Assembly (NCBI RefSeq): GCF_003086295.3
Contig: NC_092054.1
Coordinates: 18,983,878-19,047,877, forward strand
Length of the DNA: 64,000 bases
Source: Arachis hypogaea
Lineage: Eukaryota; Streptophyta; Magnoliopsida; Fabales; Fabaceae
Direction of reading: 5' to 3'
The translations under genes and the position numbers were made by a program. Within the stretch, counting starts at the first letter, position 1. Each line of letters begins with the position of its first letter. Of the stretch, positions 35,551 through 54,774 are shown in pieces. Below the pieces are notes generated by a model. It was not told the origin of the DNA, ran no database searches, and was given only the letters and a program-made list of their open reading frames with translations.

Positions 35551-35600
35551 AACCTCCCTCCCTTCCACACACACTTAAACCCTGTATGTCCTCATGCTAA
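35551..35600 (-). promoter_or_regulatory. AGGA-loop hairpin and polypurine tract
   Basis: The minus strand reads TTAGCATG, loop AGGA, then a decayed arm CATACAGG. GTTTAAGTGTGTGTGGAAGG and GAGGGAGGTT follow directly, ending at the LTR start. The tract would prime plus-strand synthesis. The hairpin is the same module seen intact at 53261-53299. Confidence 0.75.
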
Positions 35601-37070
35601 AACTAATCAAAAGTGGAAGACGGAGATGAGAAACTTATTAATTGTAACCTAAAAGAGATTCAACTGCTTAATCTAGCATGACCTGCTTCTACTATTTCTA
35701 TATTCTTGGTTAAAATAAGCCCATATCCACGAGATGCATACAAATCAAGAGGGCCAAAGCAGTAAGATGCTAAAATCAATCAATCCGTTAAATTCAGCTT
35801 GAAGAAAAATCATATACAAACTTGCAAGTGAAGAAAGGTCTAAAAGAAAAAGAAACATAGAGTTGAGCAATCAAACTCTTACTAGTGTTTGCACTCTAAT
35901 TGCTCAAGTGTATAGGGCCTGATCTACTCAATTATCGACCAAACTTGCTTCTCCAAAACTTAATTTTCATCTAATAGTCGCAGATATTTAAGGTATGCAT
36001 ACAAGCATCAAGAGGTCTTTCATAGAGTTGTAATGAGGTTAGGGTCAAGGTAATGATAAATATGGTTAAATGAACCAAAATATAGATCTCTGATTAACTT
36101 AAGCTCTTCCTAACCTTACTCGTAGTAAATGTGAATTCATATACCTAGCTACCCACTATTCCTCTTTCATATGTTTATGCATTTTATTTCCTCCATGATT
36201 ATGCATATTTAATTGTTTGTGCACTTAGCCTTTATTTTGGGCTATGTTTTCTCCAAAATTTTATTTTATTATCATTATTGTTATTATTATTTATTTTTTT
36301 TTTACATGATAAGGCTTTTCTTTTCTATCAAAGAATGTATGTGCTTGCTTTACTTGATATATGAATATATCCAATTCCCAACACAATGCACTCTATTCTT
36401 TTTAATCACCAATGTTTTCTCTCTTTCTTTTCACGTTCCTTTTTTCCAACACAATGTAATGTAACAACTGTTCCCAAGCTAATTAAAAATTAGAATTGGA
36501 TATTCATTATTTTTCACTTAGGCTGATGTGCTTAATCAAAGAAAGAAAAACAAGGCTCAAAAGTATGGTTACAAAGGTGAATGAGAGAGATGGTTTATAT
36601 GGTTAAGTGGGTTTAAAGAAATAAAGGCCTCAATCACACAAATGTATACAAGCGATAAATGTTAGACCTCAACAATCAAGCAAGTTAAAGATCACAATTA
36701 TAGAGAGAATAAATAACGCATCGCAATACAATAGTGGTTATAATAATGCAACCACGCCATGAGGCTTAAGTCTCACCAGGTGATGCGTTCTAGCTCTAAC
36801 TATGTTCTAAACTATTATTCATGCAAGTTTATAAAAAAAATAGCTTAATTCAATGGATTATTGCCCTAAAATTACTTTCTCGAGAGTTTATTACCTTAAC
36901 CAACCAACCTAAGTGATTTTTTTTAACGAGTCAAACAACTTCCAAACATGTCTAACTATCCAAAATATCACAAAATAGAGCAGAAATATAATAACTATCT
37001 GACAAATATGCAAAATAATATCTAAAAGTGTTCAAAGGAAAAGTAATATAATATCACCAATCGAGTAGAC

Positions 37071-37109
37071 GACCTCCTCACACTTAGAAAAATGCACGGT
37101 CCTCCGTGC
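37071..37109 (-). promoter_or_regulatory. internal AGGA-loop hairpin with polypurine-like tract
   Basis: The minus strand reads GCACGG, AGGA, CCGTGC, a perfect 6-bp stem. CTAAGTGTGAGGAGGTC follows after 6 bases. It lies about 1.5 kb upstream of the terminal copy at 35551-35600, as in the element at 47168-54774. Confidence 0.7.
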
Positions 37110-47167: not shown

Positions 47168-48592
47168 TGATAAACCACTATTTTATAGTTTATCTTGTAC
47201 TCAATTGAGTGGTTTTTATCAAGTCTTTCACACTTATTCATACTAATTGCATAGTTTTACATTTTCCTTCCTAATCTTGTGCTATGATTGAAAATATGTT
47301 TCCTGTGCCTTTAAATTACCAAAAATTAATTCCCCTTTATACCATTCGATGCCGTGATATGTGTGTTAAGTGATTTCAGGGTTTATAGGGCAGGAATGGC
47401 TTAGAAAATGGAGAGGAAGCTTGCCAAAATGGAAGGAACGCAAGAAACCAAGGAGATGACCAGCGAGTACCGACGCGCATGCATGACTCACGCGAGCGCG
47501 CGGAATGGAGAAAATTGCAGCAACGCGTGCGCGTGCCTGACGCGAACGCGTGGATTGGAGTCTGCACAGATGACGCGCACGCGTGACTGACGCGTACGCG
47601 TGACATTCGCGATTTGCAGAATTAACAGAAAACTCTGGGGGCAATTTCTGGGTTGTTTTTTACCCAGTTTTCGGCCCAGAAAACACATATTAGAGGCTAT
47701 AAAGTGGAGAAATGCATTCATTCATCAAAAACAACTTTCATATTCACAATTTTAGGTTTTAGATGTAGTTTCTAGAGAGAGAGGCTCTCTCCTCTCACTT
47801 AGGTTTTAGGATTAGGATTTCTCTTAATTTTAGGATCGCTTCTTCATTCGAGGTTCAATGTTCTTTTAATTTATGTTTCTCTTCTACTTTTATTTATTCT
47901 AATGCTTTTACTTGTTAATTACTTATGTTGCCAAATTGGCTTATGAACTCTTCATGTTAGATTTGAATTTATGTTCAAATGCAATTTGAGGTATTTCAGA
48001 TTTATGGTTGCTTTCTTCTATTTATGATATAAATAATTTAGATTTTTTCCCCTTTGCTTTGGTTAAGTAATTGGTGACACTTGAGTTATCAAACTCAGCT
48101 GTTGATTAAAAATTGGAATTTGTTGATTGATTTGGATCCCTCTAAAGATAGTCTTTCCACAGGAGTTGACTAGGACTTGAGGAATCAAATTGATTAGTCC
48201 ACTTGACTTTCCTTTATTTAGTAAGGGTTAACTAAGTGGAAGCAATAAACAATTCTCATCACACCTGATAAGGATAACTAGGATGGGATTTCCAGTTCTC
48301 ATACCTTGCCAAGAGTTTTTATAGTTAGTTTTTTTCCATTGCCATTTACTATTGTTGCTTCTTATCTTAAAAAACCCAAAAAGATACTTTTTCCATAACC
48401 AAAATAAACACACCTCCCTGCAATTTCTTGAGAGACGACCCGAGGTTTAAATACTTCGGTTATAAATTTTATTGGGTTTGCTTAAGTGACAACCAAAATT
48501 TTTGTACGAAAGGATTCTCTGTTGGTTTAGAAGCTATACTTACAACGCGATTATTTTTATAAAACTCTTTACTAGTAGAAAACCAATCGTCA
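47168..48592 (+). repeat. 5' LTR of Athila-type element
   Basis: 1425 bp, TGATAAACCAC...CCAATCGTCA. A CpG-rich palindrome array lies at 47478-47612 (ACGCGTACGCGTGAC and variants). A TATA-like TATAAAGTGGAG at 47698 downstream of the array may mark the promoter. Confidence 0.92.
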
Positions 48593-48595
48593 AAA

Positions 48596-48613
48596 TGGCG
48601 CCGTTGCCGGGAA
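48596..48613 (+). promoter_or_regulatory. tRNA-Asp-type primer-binding site
   Basis: TGGCGCCGTTGCCGGG, three bases after the LTR, complementary to the 3' end of plant tRNA-Asp. It is the usual primer of Athila-type elements. Confidence 0.92.
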
Positions 48614-48707
48614 ATTGCAAACGTGTGCCTTATTATTGGTTATTGTAAATATTTTATTTTGCTTGTTTATTTCTTTTTATTTTTGTTTTTAATTTTTATT
48701 AGTTACT

Positions 48708-50332
48708 ATGAGTTCTCACCCCCGTCGCTTTGAGTTTGGTTCTAATGTTGTTGAAAGGAATGGAAGCTATAACAGGAACGTGCATCAAGGTCAAAACAAT
48801 CTAAGATGGAAGGAGCCACGGGGATCTGATCAACCCTTTCGGCAACAACACCTTTCAAGATACCATGGACAACGACCATCCTACAATGCATGCCAAGACA
48901 ATAGTTATGGTGGACCCCTCCGTGACAAACCACCTCCACCAAATTACTATGGTCAAGAGCCATTCCGAGGTGCATACCAAGATGATAGATATGGTGGACC
49001 CCCTTGTAGTTACCAACAAGCCCCATCATATGCCTATGAACCACCTCCTCAACATAGCTTTGAACTACCATACTCACAAGTCACCTAGAACCATTCACCT
49101 CCATATGACCCTAACCTTTATCCACCCTAATTCCAATTCAATTACTCCCAAGAACCACCACTTCCATATGTACCAGGTCCATATCCATCGACCCAAGAAT
49201 CACAGGCTCGCCTCAAGGAAACAGTAGATCAATTTCATGCAACCCTTCATCAATTGGAGCAAGCGATAAATCAATTAGCTTCCCGACGTTCGGACACTCA
49301 AGGAACCCCATGGCTTCATGAAGAGAATCTAATGAAGAACGTATCATGAAGGAGACACTAGAAATTCCGGTGGACAGTGAGCAGCATGACTTTGTATTGG
49401 AACAATTGGAGGAAGCCGTAATCGTTAAAGAGGAAGAAGTGGTCAAAGACTTAGGAGATGCGGATCGTCCATGGGAAAGCCCAGTCATAGAGCCTCCTTC
49501 TAAGGAGTTTGAATTTGATGTTGAGGAGGGTGTACAACCTCCAAGGCACATCATGGTTGAAGACTTTGAAAAGGATGATCAAAAGATGGATTCAATCATT
49601 GATGAATTCTTATCTACAATTGAATCCTCTCCCATTGGACTTGACATGGAGATCAAAGAAGAAGAAGCACAAACTCCCATGCCCTTGGTAAGGAATAAAG
49701 AAGAGATTGAATTGGAAGAAAACTACCAAGAGGAAGAGGTTGAAATTGAAGAAGCTTACAAAGAGGTGGAAGTTGTCAACGAAGAGCACAAGAGAGTGGA
49801 GCTTGAAATCACCTTGCCAAAGTTGTTGGAGACCTCTCCGCCTAAGTTACCATCATCCTTCATAGCATTCAAGTGGGTAAAATTCATATCCCTTAGCTTT
49901 CTCATCCCACTTGAATATGATTTACTTAAGACAGATGGTCAACTTAGAGCTCTTTGTGGCATTAAGAGTAAGAGGGAGATGGTTAGTAGTAGGAAATGTC
50001 ATGCAAGGTTCAATATGGTTACATGCTCCAAATTGAAGTATAAGGATTGGTATAATTCTCAATTGAATGCGTCTAGAAAATTGTTTGGATGTCTCCGTGA
50101 GAATTCCGACTGTTCATCACCCAAGTGGAAAAATGATGATCAACAAGAAGACGGGTGCAAAAGTAAGGTTTGGGACCCCGGAATTCAGTCTAGCAATCAA
50201 CACTCTTGGAGCCTTGTCACTTGCTTTAACTTGCTTGAAGGCTTTATGCAACTAGTGTGGGATCCCGGAGGCTATTGGAATTACAAACACTGGTGGGGAT
50301 TCCTGGATGAGTTCAAGCACAAGCCTCCATGA
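48708..50332 (+). pseudogene. internal ORF of non-autonomous Athila-type element (two stops, one frameshift)
   Basis: The first frame (48708-49088) is rich in Tyr, Pro, Gln and Arg (QQAPSYAYEPPPQHSFELPY) and ends at a TAG. The same frame continues past TAG (49086) and TAA (49125) with EPPLPYVPGPYPSTQES and LKETVDQFHATLHQLEQAIN. Near 49325 a +1 shift leads into the open frame 49346-50332. That part is acidic (EEEVEIEEAYKEVEV) and ends with a Cys/Trp-containing region (WDPGGYWNYKHWWGFLDEF). The original was one protein of about 540 residues. It has no protease or RT motif and no zinc knuckle that I can see. It may be a divergent gag-like structural protein; function unknown. Confidence 0.7.
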
Positions 50333-50554
50333 CAAGAAGCTCCTCAAATGTCTAACTTAAGGACTTTAACTAAAAGTGCTAGGTGGGAGACAACCCACCA
50401 TGGTATGATCATTCTTTTTCAGTCTTAGTTTGGTTTTATTTCGTTTTATTCTTAAATTTTATTCTATTCTATTTTTCTTAGTGATCATTTATAATATCTG
50501 CATCAGCATCTGCATTTTGGATTCTGCATACTGCATATATAAAAAAAAAGCACA

Positions 50555-51110
50555 CGACGCGCAAGCGTCGCTGACGCGTACGCGTCATATGTGCATGCGA
50601 GACAAGGGAGAACGAAACAGAAAGTTACGCGGGAGCGTGGCTGGAGGCGTGCTTTAGGCACAAACACGCCCATGCGTGCGCGTCCCTAACGCGTCCGTGT
50701 CAATTGCAAAATCAACCTCCCATGCGTACGCGTCACCCACGCGTATGCGTCACCCTACAAATCGGCGTAAAGAGGTGTCAGGCCGAAAGTTGTGCTGGCC
50801 TAGTGCGGGCACTGCGCCCAAGGCACAAAATCACCCACGCGTACGCGTCCCCGACGCATGCGCGCCAGTTTCAATTACTGACCACTCACGCGTACGCGTC
50901 AATGACGCGTACGCGTCAATGACGCGCACGCGTCACATGTTATTTTGGCACACACCCCAAGACAAACAGAGAGTTGTGCGCGCGCAAGGATCCTCGCGTG
51001 AATAGCACAAACATGGTCACGCAAACGCGTGACCGACGCCTACGCGTCACCCCCTCAGTACGCGACCCACGCGTACACGTGGAGTACACGTACGCGTCAT
51101 TCGCGAATCC
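50555..51110. repeat. CpG-rich palindrome cluster in element interior
   Basis: About twenty variants of ACGCGTACGCGTC, including perfect 14-bp palindromes GACGCGTACGCGTC near 50574 and 50910, are separated by 10-40 bp. The same words occur in the LTRs of this element and in other LTR families of the window. Confidence 0.85.
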
Positions 51111-51671
51111 GCACCTGAACCCTGCGCAGCCCTGTTTTTCATATCTTATCTTTCTAAATTCTAATTTCTTTCTTCCTTCTTTCTTACTTTCTTCTTCTTC
51201 ATTTCTTTACCTTTTCATCCTTATTTTCTTTCATTCTATTTTACTTAATTTATTTGCATACTTTCATTCACTGCATTTTAATTTTGTGCATATTTTTATT
51301 TTCTTTTCTAAAGTTATTCTTTTTTCATTGGTGTTAAATTTTCTTATTCAACTGTTATGTCTTTTCTGGTATTATTTTGGTGCTTAGTGACTTGTTTTAC
51401 ACTGTTGGATGATATTATTTATCTGTCACTGCCAATCTTTTATATTATGTGTATCCCTTTTGCATTGACATGAATTTATATTTTCTTGCATTACTCACAC
51501 TCTCTTTCCCATTGTTGCAAATTTTTGCACTCTTGATTTGCCATGTGCTTCTACTGTTTTCTCACTTGCATGTTGTAGCTACCATGTAATTGATACTCTC
51601 ATCATTTGGCATTAATCCAACCATATTTTAAATTATTTCCTATCTTTATTTCTGGGTTACTTTTCTTCTTT

Positions 51672-51840
51672 TTCCTTTTCTTTCAGGATGGCCACCGAGA
51701 AGGGATAGGAAGAACTTCTATATGGGGAAATAGACAAGTTCCATCTGCACAATCTTTGGAGAATAGCATCAATTGTAGTAGCCCGTCCACTTGCACATCT
51801 TAGCATGCACCGAGGACGGTGCAATCTTTAAGTGTGGGGA
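51672..51840 (+). other. short post-ORF segment upstream of the internal hairpin
   Basis: Begins ATGGCCACCGAGAAGGGATAG after TTTCTTTCAG, which looks like a 3' splice site. The frame stops after six codons; another frame stays open to 51803. Probably the remnant of a second small exon. No family recognised. Confidence 0.3.
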
Positions 51841-51843
51841 GGT
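51806..51843 (+). promoter_or_regulatory. internal AGGA-loop hairpin with polypurine tract
   Basis: TGCACCG, loop AGGA, CGGTGCA forms a perfect 7-bp stem. Three bases later comes TTTAAGTGTGGGGAGGT (51827-51843), identical over 17 bases to the tract at the 3' LTR. Confidence 0.85.
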
Positions 51844-53260
51844 CGATACCGACTTTCGTGGGTTAGTTATTTTCTTCTCAACACCAATATATTACTTTAT
51901 TTATTAGTTCATTGTTGCACTTGTATGTTTAATTGCATGTTTGTTTGATTTTGTGCATATTTTACCACCACTTGGTTAAAGTAATATTTTCTTTTTCAAG
52001 AAACTTTTTACAGCATTTCACTCATTTGAATTAAAATTTTTATTGAACTTGTTTGAAGAAATATTATTTTGGAACATGGTTTAGAGCTCGAACACACAAA
52101 ACCAGTAAGATTTTGAGCTTATTTGATTGGTTGCATTTTATCAACCAATATTTTATTTTTGGTGTGTGTTTTTCTCTCTAAAATTGTGATCTTTGTCTTG
52201 ATTAATTCTATATTTCAATGGTTTGATGTATGCATGCACTTATATGATTGAGGCCTTGTTTCACTAAGCTTACATACCTATATGGCCTTAACCTTTCATT
52301 ATCCTTTGCAAACCAATTTGAGCCTATTTTACCCTTTTTATTCTTTACTTTAGCTCATCACTAACTCTAAGCGGAAAATAATAATGTCCTTAATTTGAAT
52401 TCTTAGTTAGCTTAGACTAGTGAGAGTGTTCATAATTTAAGTGTGTGGAAAAGTGGGTTTGGAAACGTTTGGTTTAAGAATTGGGTGTTATATATCTTTA
52501 TGAAAATGTGAAAGAAATGTTTAAGACATGTTCATGCATTCAATAATTTAATCATATGCATTGAGAAAAACAAAAAAATAAAAAAAAATAAAAAAAAGAG
52601 AGAAAAAATAAAGGAGAAAAAGAAAAGAAAAAAAGAGCAATTAAGCAAAAAGAGGACAAAATCTGCAAAGTAAATGTTGATAGCAATGCATATGTACTGT
52701 ACTCGAATCAGGATGCATGAATATGTGGAAAACATGGTTAATGGATAGTTAGATTTTGTATTGTGATTACATGGATTGTCTTAAGTTAGGTGGGAAAAGT
52801 TTAAGTTAATTAAGGATTCGGATTTTAGTCCACTTGGCCAAATACAATCCTACCTTGACCTAACCCATTACAACCCTTAAAAGACCTCTTGATATGTGTA
52901 TTTGTGCATCAAATTAGTGTTGATTGGTAGAAGAAAAGCAAGCCTTAGAAAGCAAGGTTAGTAGAGAATTGAGAGAGTCGAACTTTAAACACCTGAGCGA
53001 TTAGAGTGTATACACTTCCGGTGAGGGTTCGACGCTCGATTCTATGTTCCCTGCTTTAATGAGCTATCTTCTTACAAGTTTACTTGTACTTTATTTTGTG
53101 ATTTGAATTAGTGGAATCTGATTCATGTTTGTCTTAGAGAATTTGTTTACTTTTAACCAAGTAGGTAGAAGTCATTTTGCATATAGTTGCATTCATATAG
53201 ATAGGTTGCATTTCATGCATTCTACCATTCCTCTTCACTCCTTTATAGCTTCTATTGAGC
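51844..53260. other. element interior between the two polypurine tracts
   Basis: About 1.4 kb of AT-rich sequence with no coding support. 52562-52650 is an A/G-rich tract. A 60-aa-scale frame on the minus strand there is low complexity. Confidence 0.6.
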
Positions 53261-53299
53261 TTAGCATGAGGACATGCTAATGTTTAAGTGTGGGGAGGT
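53261..53299 (+). promoter_or_regulatory. terminal AGGA-loop hairpin and polypurine tract
   Basis: TTAGCATG, loop AGGA, CATGCTAA forms a perfect 8-bp stem. Two bases later comes TTTAAGTGTGGGGAGGT (53283-53299), which directly abuts the 3' LTR. The tract is where plus-strand DNA synthesis would start. Confidence 0.9.
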
Positions 53300-54774
53300 T
53301 GATAAACTACTATTTTATGGTTTATCTTGTGCTCAATTGAGTAGTTTTTATCAAGTCTTTGCACATTTATTCATACTAATTGCATTGTTTTACATTTTCC
53401 TTCCTAATCTTGTGCTATGATTGAAAACATGTTTCCTGGGCCTTTAAATTACCAAAAATTAATTCCCCTTTATACCATTCGATGCCGTGATATGTGTGTT
53501 AAGTGATTTTAGGGTTTATAAGGCAGGAATGGCTTAGAAAATAGAGAGGAAGCTTGCAAAAATGGAAGGAACACAAGAAACCAAGGAGATGACCAGCGAG
53601 TACCGACGCGCACGCATGGCTCACGCGAGCGCGCGGAATGGAAAAAATTGCAGCGATGCGTGCGCGTGCCTGACACGAACATGTGGATTGGAGTCTGCAC
53701 AGATGACGCGCACGCGTGGACGACGCGTACGCGTGACAAGGAAATTCGCCAAATGACGCGCACGCGTGACTGATGCGTATGCGTGACCTTCGCGATCTAC
53801 AGAATTAACAGAAAATGTTGGGAGCGATTTTTGGGCTGTTTTTGACCTAGTTTTCGGCCCAGAAAACACATATTAGAGGCTATAAAGTGGAGGAATGCAT
53901 CCATTCATCAAAATAACTTTCATATTCACAATTTTAGGTTTTATATGTAGTTTCTAGAGAGAGAGAGAGGCTCTATCCTCTCTCTTAGGTTTTAGGATTA
54001 GGATTTCTCTTAATTTTAGGATTGCTTCTTCATTCGAGGTTCAATGTTCTTTTAATTTATGTTTCTCTTCTACTTTTATTTATTCTAATGCTTTTACTTG
54101 TTAATTACTTATGTTGCCAAATCAGCTTATGAACTCTTCATGTTAGATTTGAATTTATGCTTAAATGCAAGGTATTTCAGATTTATGGTTGCTTTCTTCT
54201 ATTTATGATATAAATAATTTAGATTTTTTCCCCTTTGCTTTGGTTGAGTAATTGGTGACACTTGAGTTATCAAACTCAACTGTTGATTGAAAATTAGAAT
54301 TTGCTAACTGATTTGGATCCCTCTAAAGCTAGTCTTTCCACAGGAGTTGACTAGGACTTGAGGAATCAAATTGATTAATCCACTTGACTTTCCTTTATTT
54401 AGTAAGGGTTAACTAAGTGGGAGCAATAAACAATTCTCATCACACCTGATAAGGATAACTAGAATGAAATTTTCAGTTCTCATACCTTGCCAAGAGTTTT
54501 TATAGTTAGTTTGTTTCCATTGCCATTTACTATTGTTGCTTCTTATCTTAAAAAACCCAAAAAGATACTTTTTTCATAACCAATAATAAACACACCTCCC
54601 TGCAATTCTTTGAGAGACAACCTGAGATTTAAATACTTCGGTTATAAATTTTATTGGATTTGCTTAAGTGACAACTAAAATTTTTGTACGAAAGGATTCT
54701 CTATTGGTTTAGAAGCTATACTTACAACGCGATTATTTTTATAAAACTCTTTACTAGCAGAAAACCAATCGTCA
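53300..54774 (+). repeat. 3' LTR of Athila-type element
   Basis: 1475 bp. It is longer than the 5' LTR mainly because the CpG palindrome array (53600-53800) has an extra unit of about 48 bp containing GACGCGTACGCGTGAC. Confidence 0.92.

What the first reader, a model, noticed from the sequence alone, without database searches (positions are those of the whole stretch)
51806..53299. AGGA-loop hairpin fused to the polypurine tract, with covarying stems
Seen directly: TGCACCG-AGGA-CGGTGCA (51806-51823) and TTAGCATG-AGGA-CATGCTAA (53261-53280) are perfect stems of different sequence with the same loop. Each is followed 2-3 bases later by the identical 17-mer TTTAAGTGTGGGGAGGT. A third stem at 37109-37094 (minus), GCACGG-AGGA-CCGTGC, differs from the first by a compensating C-G to G-C swap. 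Conserved loop, changing but paired stem and fixed distance to a polypurine tract argue for a selected RNA or DNA structure. It could place or protect the plus-strand primer. I know of no description of it.
Basis: partly seen in the sequence, partly recalled or inferred. Interest (0 to 1): 0.8.

Follow-up and report, generated by a model that had tools for sequence, protein, structure and literature searches.

The report
Paired hairpins before retrotransposon priming tracts
In very abundant plant retrotransposons, the suspected DNA-synthesis priming tracts are preceded at a nearly fixed distance by a small hairpin whose loop stays the same while its stem changes yet keeps pairing, which points to a structural signal in how these elements copy themselves.

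Summary
The 17-mer has 30,404 exact copies in the genome. Of 88 distinct sampled sites, 80 carry an AGGA-loop hairpin upstream (at most one mispair in six; shuffles average 0.2). Stems change but stay paired: covariation score 0.90 against 0.22 shuffled and at most 0.17 slid over 26 distinct modules, a set chosen partly for pairing; draws that ignore pairing agree. The paired C-G to G-C swap has 2,158 copies, one unpaired intermediate 20; the other intermediate did not complete. In 18 of 20 regions an internal and an LTR-adjacent tract occur together, mostly 1.4-1.75 kb apart; two further lineages show such a pair. The core ends 11-13 nt before the tract's AAG. A doubled PPT is already reported for Athila4 and Calypso; I found no description of the hairpin, but the 2002 paper was not held. 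Best reading: a structural part of a plus-strand priming signal. The structure is strongly supported; the priming role is inferred, not tested.

The parts
51806..51823 (+). internal hairpin TGCACCG-AGGA-CGGTGCA
   Evidence: read directly; fold z -3.45
51827..51843 (+). internal PPT-like tract TTTAAGTGTGGGGAGGT
   Evidence: 30,404 exact genome copies
53261..53280 (+). LTR-adjacent hairpin TTAGCATG-AGGA-CATGCTAA
   Evidence: read directly; fold z -3.54
53283..53299 (+). 3' PPT, directly before the 3' LTR
53300..54774 (+). 3' LTR of the plus-strand element, followed by GAGGG
47168..48592 (+). 5' LTR of the plus-strand element, preceded by GAAGG (5-bp flank, one mismatch to GAGGG)
   Evidence: LTR identity 94.0% over 1031 and 94.4% over 444 columns
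48596..48612 (+). tRNA-Asp type primer binding site, 3 nt after the 5' LTR
   Evidence: 17-nt pattern typed from recall, up to 3 substitutions
37094..37109 (-). internal hairpin GCACGG-AGGA-CCGTGC of a second element
   Evidence: fold z -4.13
37072..37088 (-). internal tract of the second element, TCTAAGTGTGAGGAGGT
35580..35601 (-). decayed LTR-adjacent hairpin of the second element (core GAGGAC 35593-35588, 4 of 6 pairs beyond it)
35551..35579 (-). decayed 3' tract of the second element; LTR-like TGATAAATCC begins at about 35550
   Evidence: sequence printed

Best explanation
A structured plus-strand priming module. SHOWN: Athila-type and related elements carry, usually twice, a hairpin with a conserved G-AGGA-C core and a changing but paired stem, whose core ends 11-13 nt before the AAG of a purine-rich tract. 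INFERRED: the hairpin is selected as a single-strand structure (in genomic RNA, or in minus-strand DNA after the RNA is removed) that helps make or use the plus-strand primer. Favoured mechanism: reverse transcriptase, having just copied the tract, meets the hairpin and stalls; the stem base lies 16-22 nt upstream of the tract's 3' end, so the trailing RNase H domain of a stalled enzyme would sit near the tract/U3 border, where the primer must be cut. The hairpin would also bound the 5' end of the retained RNA primer. The internal module would give a second plus-strand start, like a central PPT.
For: 80 of 88 distinct 17-mer sites have the hairpin within one mispair (shuffle mean 0.2) and none of the 88 has one in the 40 nt downstream. 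Covariation score 0.901 against 0.220 (sd 0.035) shuffled and at most 0.169 slid; draws not using pairing: 15.4 of 25.9 groups fully paired at five positions against 3.0. Paired swap 2,158 copies, G.G intermediate 20. In 20 of 20 loci located by stem sequence a tract follows within one mismatch, and the next pair outward, not fixed by the search, is Watson-Crick in 19. Core to AAG 11-13 nt in 97 of 99 rows, the other two lacking AAG. Two modules also in lineage B and in one lineage C region. Stem base to tract end 16-22 nt.
Against: No biochemical or cDNA data. Most Ty3/gypsy elements of other kinds were not examined, so necessity is not shown; Ty3 itself primes from a PPT with no hairpin mentioned in the passages read. 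The Ty3 enzyme's two active sites are given as about 13 bp apart (PMC5371799, passages), less than 16-22 nt. Core-to-tract distance is tighter than stem-base-to-tract distance, which suits a protein reading the core as well as a stalled polymerase. Some coding tract-like copies have no hairpin (L010, L011, L012, L075). No strand preference: 12 G.U against 10 A.C cells.
Confidence: 0.5

Rival explanations
1. The hairpin is a protein- or RNA-recognition signal (nucleocapsid, integrase or RT docking; packaging or dimerisation): a protein reads the nearly invariant GAGGAC core and the stem only presents it. It lies by the tract because element RNA or cDNA is held there.
For: Core nearly invariant (at least 90% in columns 9-14 of 28 modules) while the stem varies freely in sequence; core-to-AAG distance 11-13 nt whatever the stem length.
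Against: Packaging or dimerisation alone does not predict two copies, each tied to a tract, in three lineages.
Confidence: 0.27
2. The hairpin forms in minus-strand DNA and stops plus-strand synthesis arriving from upstream, limiting displacement of the tract-primed strand (a terminator next to each start).
For: It lies exactly where an upstream plus strand would meet the next tract-primed strand; minus-strand DNA folds are strong (z -3.38, -4.08, -3.55).
Against: The lentiviral central terminator is downstream of its PPT (recalled); no end mapping; DNA and RNA folding cannot be told apart by complementarity.
Confidence: 0.15
3. A double-stranded DNA palindrome bound by a host or element protein, or a feature of transcription, splicing or RNA stability unrelated to priming.
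For: Inverted repeats are usual protein sites; in lineage B the internal module lies about 65 nt before the ATG of a PF20167 ORF.
Against: The arms change completely between types while the middle stays fixed, the reverse of a usual palindromic binding site; a 5' position to an ORF is not shared by lineage A, where PF20167 ORFs lie before the internal module (L015, L024).
Confidence: 0.05
4. No selection: the pairing is inherited from a few founder sequences and the rest is copy number.
For: Copies of a subfamily are nearly identical; two of the five measures (pairs with change on both sides; further pair types) do not exceed shuffles.
Against: Six main stem types all pair, score and paired cells exceed every shuffle and slide, and flank-independent draws agree.
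Confidence: 0.03

Closest known systems
Extra PPT of Athila4 and Calypso (Wright and Voytas 2002, as cited in PMC2829016, passages read; the 2002 paper itself not held)
   Same: Env-type Ty3/gypsy elements with one additional PPT between coding region and 3' LTR.
   Different: The citing passage mentions no hairpin; whether the 2002 paper does is unknown to me.
Sirevirus multiple PPTs and PPT-flanking inverted repeat (PMC2829016, passages)
   Same: Several PPT copies near the 3' LTR; an inverted repeat at a set position by the terminal PPT.
   Different: There the arms (about 28 bp) enclose the PPT and reach into the LTR, and upstream PPTs lack it; here a short hairpin with a 4-nt loop lies wholly upstream, at both tracts. 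Sireviruses are Ty1/copia.
Central PPT of lentiviruses and PPT2 of Ty1 (recalled; also mentioned in PMC2829016 passages)
   Same: A second, internal copy of the tract.
   Different: No upstream covarying hairpin known to me; those copies lie inside coding sequence; use as a start was shown there and not here.
Ty3 PPT (PMC5371799 and PMC3185511, passages)
   Same: Ty3/gypsy plus-strand priming, with RNase H positioning at the PPT/U3 border as the central problem.
   Different: One PPT. The word 'hairpin' does not occur in either text; 'stem-loop' occurs once in PMC5371799 in a place not shown to me.

Membership tests
Athila group (plus-strand element of the window) | PBS complementary to tRNA-Asp just after the 5' LTR | tested here: met
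   TGGCGCCGTTGCCGGGA at 48596, 3 nt after the LTR; PMC1142308 gives tRNA-Asp at 5 bp for the Calypso group and Diaspora. Lineage B has the same PBS.
Athila group (plus-strand element of the window) | one additional PPT upstream of the 3' PPT | tested here: met
   51827-51843 and 53283-53299
Athila group (plus-strand element of the window) | LTR pair with 5-bp target duplication | tested here: met
   LTRs by self-BLAST; GAAGG/GAGGG flanks, one mismatch
Athila group (plus-strand element of the window) | RT/integrase phylogeny | not tested
   its two longest ORFs have no Pfam hit; no tree was made, so 'Athila' rests on PBS and tract. Lineages B and C were not placed by phylogeny either.
Sirevirus-type PPT inverted repeat | arms enclose the PPT, right arm inside the LTR | tested here: not met
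   the hairpin closes 2-5 nt upstream of the tract in the window; none of 88 sites has an AGGA hairpin in the 40 nt downstream
Central PPT | internal tract used as a plus-strand start | not testable with these tools
   needs cDNA end mapping
Rfam RNA families | covariance-model match | tested here: not met
   window 51000-54000: no match up to E = 1 among 4227 families

The most novel reading that the evidence does not exclude
Athila-related plant retrotransposons define their plus-strand origins not by a polypurine tract alone but by a composite signal: a covarying AGGA-core hairpin at a set distance from TTTAAGTNTGG, used twice per element. In lineages where the tract is hardly purine-rich (AAGTTTGGTGTTG), the hairpin would be the main determinant that stalls or docks reverse transcriptase and positions RNase H.
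Probability: 0.3. Interest if true: 0.8.

Novelty: new variant of a known kind. Interest (0 to 1): 0.62.

Why it matters
How reverse transcriptase picks the exact plus-strand primer has been explained mainly by the chemistry of the tract itself. A conserved, covarying hairpin at a nearly fixed distance, in elements with tens of thousands of copies in one genome, would add a structural determinant, give a direct test (break and re-pair the stem), and supply a marker for 3' LTR borders and extra priming sites in plant genomes.

Tried and rejected
G-quadruplex between the loop GG and the tract: rejected by inspection, since lineage B tracts lack the G runs. Rfam: no match. Strand preference by G.U against A.C: undecided (12 against 10 cells; 1,496 against 674 genome copies of one pair of forms, of which an unknown part is one subfamily). 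Tandem array in L019 as a trace of internal priming: its junction is not at the tract. Literature: ten searches; five were aimed at a hairpin, stem-loop or conserved stem by the PPT or at the stem letters, of which 8, 80 and 81 listed no paper; of 9 and 38 I saw titles and abstract starts only, and none describes this hairpin. Papers were seen as found passages. Never answered: genome counts for the C.C intermediate, the commonest internal stem, and the tract variant CTAAGTGTGAGGAGGT.

Full report
What was checked. The three hairpins and the two identical 17-mers are exactly as described. The window lies in an unnamed 2.56-Gb genome. It is most likely peanut: an 801-aa gag-protease ORF of lineage B (below) matches an Arachis hypogaea protein at 96% identity over 63% of the query; this is an inference.

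The element. The plus-strand feature is one LTR retrotransposon, 47168-54774: LTRs about 94% identical, a tRNA-Asp type primer binding site at 48596, and GAAGG/GAGGG flanks. Its two longest ORFs have no Pfam hit, so it looks non-autonomous. PBS type and doubled tract agree with the Athila group (PMC1142308 and PMC2829016, passages read); no RT phylogeny was made. The minus-strand hairpin at 37109-37094 belongs to a second element, whose decayed LTR-adjacent module has its core at 35593.

How general. The 17-mer has 30,404 exact copies, its reversed control 3. I fetched 20 regions of 8-10 kb around listed places on contig 1, then 60 pieces of 157 nt at further listed places. Among these, the eight 3-kb loci and the window, counting exact 17-mer sites with at least 60 nt upstream and 40 nt downstream and dropping identical contexts, 88 remained. 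Of these 70 have an AGGA hairpin with six pairs (G.U allowed) in the 60 nt upstream and 80 have one within one mispair; simple shuffles of the upstream sequences average 0.02 and 0.2; the 40 nt downstream have none. By class, 44 of 46 LTR-adjacent and 36 of 42 internal sites have it. By eye, six of the eight misses are mutated hairpins (two of them only in the loop: GGGA, AAGA), one is a coding tract-like copy (L075) and one looks deleted (L084).

Two modules. In 18 of the 20 regions an internal and an LTR-adjacent tract occur together, 17 at 1.42-1.75 kb and L015 at 3.06 kb (perhaps interrupted); L017 and L025 show one only (counted by eye, hairpins decayed in some). A recalled motif, GCTCGAGGACGAGC, has 14,051 copies against 0 for its reversed control. 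Five of six fetched sites read TTTGCTCG-AGGA-CGAGCAA, then TAAGTTTGGTGTGG; the sixth (L049) is unrelated. The element of one of these (lineage B; L117 and L055, LTRs 99.8% identical, flanks GAGTT) has a second module 2.07 kb on at its LTR: TTGCTTG-GGGA-CAAGCAA, then AAGTTTGGTGTTG and the LTR. Of 20 regions fetched about 2 kb downstream of other such sites, 14 contain this junction and all 14 have the hairpin, loop AGGA in 9 and GGGA in 5; of the other six, one (L109) has the hairpin with the tract deleted. The B junction has 36,604 exact copies. A third lineage (C) has the tract AAGTGTGGGGGAGGAT and, in L138, a second, partly decayed module 1.7 kb on; the other C region, L139, showed no LTR-adjacent module of its own, only a lineage B module on the other strand.

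Covariation. Of 99 rows with a core (52 distinct 22-mers), 40 of the 52 pair at all five inner positions against 12.6 on average and 24 at most when whole arms are shuffled. Six main stem types (AGCAT, GCACC, TGCTT, TGCTC, GCATC, GCACG with their complements) all pair fully. Of the ten stem types seen at least twice, three carry a mispair; 7 of 100,000 permutations of the ten reach the observed seven. Rows without a core, coding repeats (GAGGCC) and one GAGAAC row were dropped before this count. On a gapless alignment of 28 modules (26 distinct), 94.0% of cells pair and the covariation score is 0.901, against 56.1% and 0.220 (sd 0.035) in shuffles and at most 35.7% and 0.169 when slid; six of seven pairs change on both sides, but that measure and the number of further pair types do not exceed the shuffles. 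These 28 are two window modules and 26 of the 32 flank groups. That list preferred well-paired members, several of its loci were located by stem, and I left out six groups (2-4 of 6 pairs) as chance or coding matches, so this test leans towards pairing. A fairer test keeps such chance matches, leaves out the short loci located by stem (L055, L138 and L139 stay), anchors only on core and tract, and draws flank-independent groups at random 20 times: on average 15.4 of 25.9 groups pair at all five inner positions against 3.0 when whole arms are shuffled, highest 9. A further check: 20 loci found by stem sequence (12 of the 100 places listed, 8 of the 100) all have a tract within one mismatch after the hairpin; the next pair outward, which the search did not fix, is T-A 5, A-T 4, G-C 2 and G.A 1 in the twelve and T-A in all eight. 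Genome-wide, the paired swap GCACGG/CCGTGC has 2,158 copies and the one-sided form GCACGG/CGGTGC 20. The other one-sided form did not complete, and copies descend from few founders, so these are not independent events.

Spacing. From the end of GAGGAC to AAG is 11-13 nt in 97 of 99 rows (the other two lack AAG), though 7 to about 21 was allowed by the search. The stem base lies 16-22 nt from the tract's 3' end: 18 in 5 of 5 lineage B junctions, 20-22 in 44 internal sites, 16-21 in 38 LTR-adjacent sites. In one search the patterns themselves fixed 11-13 nt between core and AAG, so its 25-27 nt from core to tract end is not a separate result, and sites with fewer than five pairs beyond the core were dropped.

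Column conservation. Over the 32 flank groups, flanks carry mostly 0.0-0.4 bit per column, stem columns 0.2-0.5, the core 1.5-2.0 and AAGTNTGG mostly 1.5-2.0; core and tract are partly high because they defined the search. The stem is thus hardly more conserved in sequence than the flanks, yet paired.

Mechanism. Shown: a conserved, covarying, positioned structure. Not shown: what it does. Its attachment to tracts in two places per element and in three lineages argues for a role in plus-strand priming. A hairpin that stalls RT just after it copies the tract would bring RNase H near the tract/U3 border. The spacing suits a retroviral-type enzyme (17-18 bp between active sites, recalled) better than Ty3, where about 13 bp is given (PMC5371799, passages). 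The core spacing suits equally a protein that reads GAGGAC. Strand is undecided: 12 G.U against 10 A.C cells among distinct modules; genome counts 1,496 against 674 for one pair of forms, part of which is one subfamily; RNA and minus-strand DNA both fold into the hairpin.

Known and new. A doubled PPT is reported for Athila4 and Calypso, and multiple PPTs for Sireviruses, where an inverted repeat encloses the terminal PPT (PMC2829016, passages). The short upstream hairpin with a fixed core at both tracts was not found in the searches made. The library lacks Wright and Voytas 2002 and most subscription journals, so absence from print is not established. Hence: a new variant of a known kind.

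Noticed in passing
L010:768, L011:7638 (minus), L012:558, L075:91: A tract-like T[CT]TA[AC]GTGTGGGGAGGT lies upstream of the internal module (about 1.9 kb in L010-L012), apparently in coding sequence, and has no hairpin.
   Followed up: partly
L055:3925, 3958, 3991: In the lineage B gag-protease ORF a 33-bp repeat carries CAAACTCTAAGTTTGGTGTT, nearly the lineage's own tract, three times; similar repeats in L017 and L050-L053.
   Followed up: no
window 53300-53330 and LTR starts of relatives: The LTR begins with an imperfect inverted repeat (TGATAAAC...GTTTATC), so the 3' tract lies between two inverted repeats (seen by eye).
   Followed up: no
L015:3169-4047, L024:6083-7207 (minus), L055:4471-6027: ORFs with PF20167 (Transposase_32) lie before the internal module in lineage A (in L015 overlapping it) but after it in lineage B, where the ATG follows the tract.
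   Followed up: partly
L019: Tandem array of units made of an LTR plus the stretch around and after the internal module (about 3 kb); the junction is not at the tract.
   Followed up: partly
L011:3860, L012:4326 (minus), L013:1838 and 8373: Another repeat carries TTTAAGTGCGAAGAGGT without an AGGA hairpin, with CTGTAGC-TCAA-GTTATGG before it; kind of element unknown.
   Followed up: no
L117:2716-4460 and L055:6935-8681: LTRs 99.8% identical, so this lineage moved recently.
   Followed up: no
L056:5130-5147: The lineage B hairpin sequence occurs once in the viral contigs, inside an ORF and with no tract after it, apparently by chance.
   Followed up: yes
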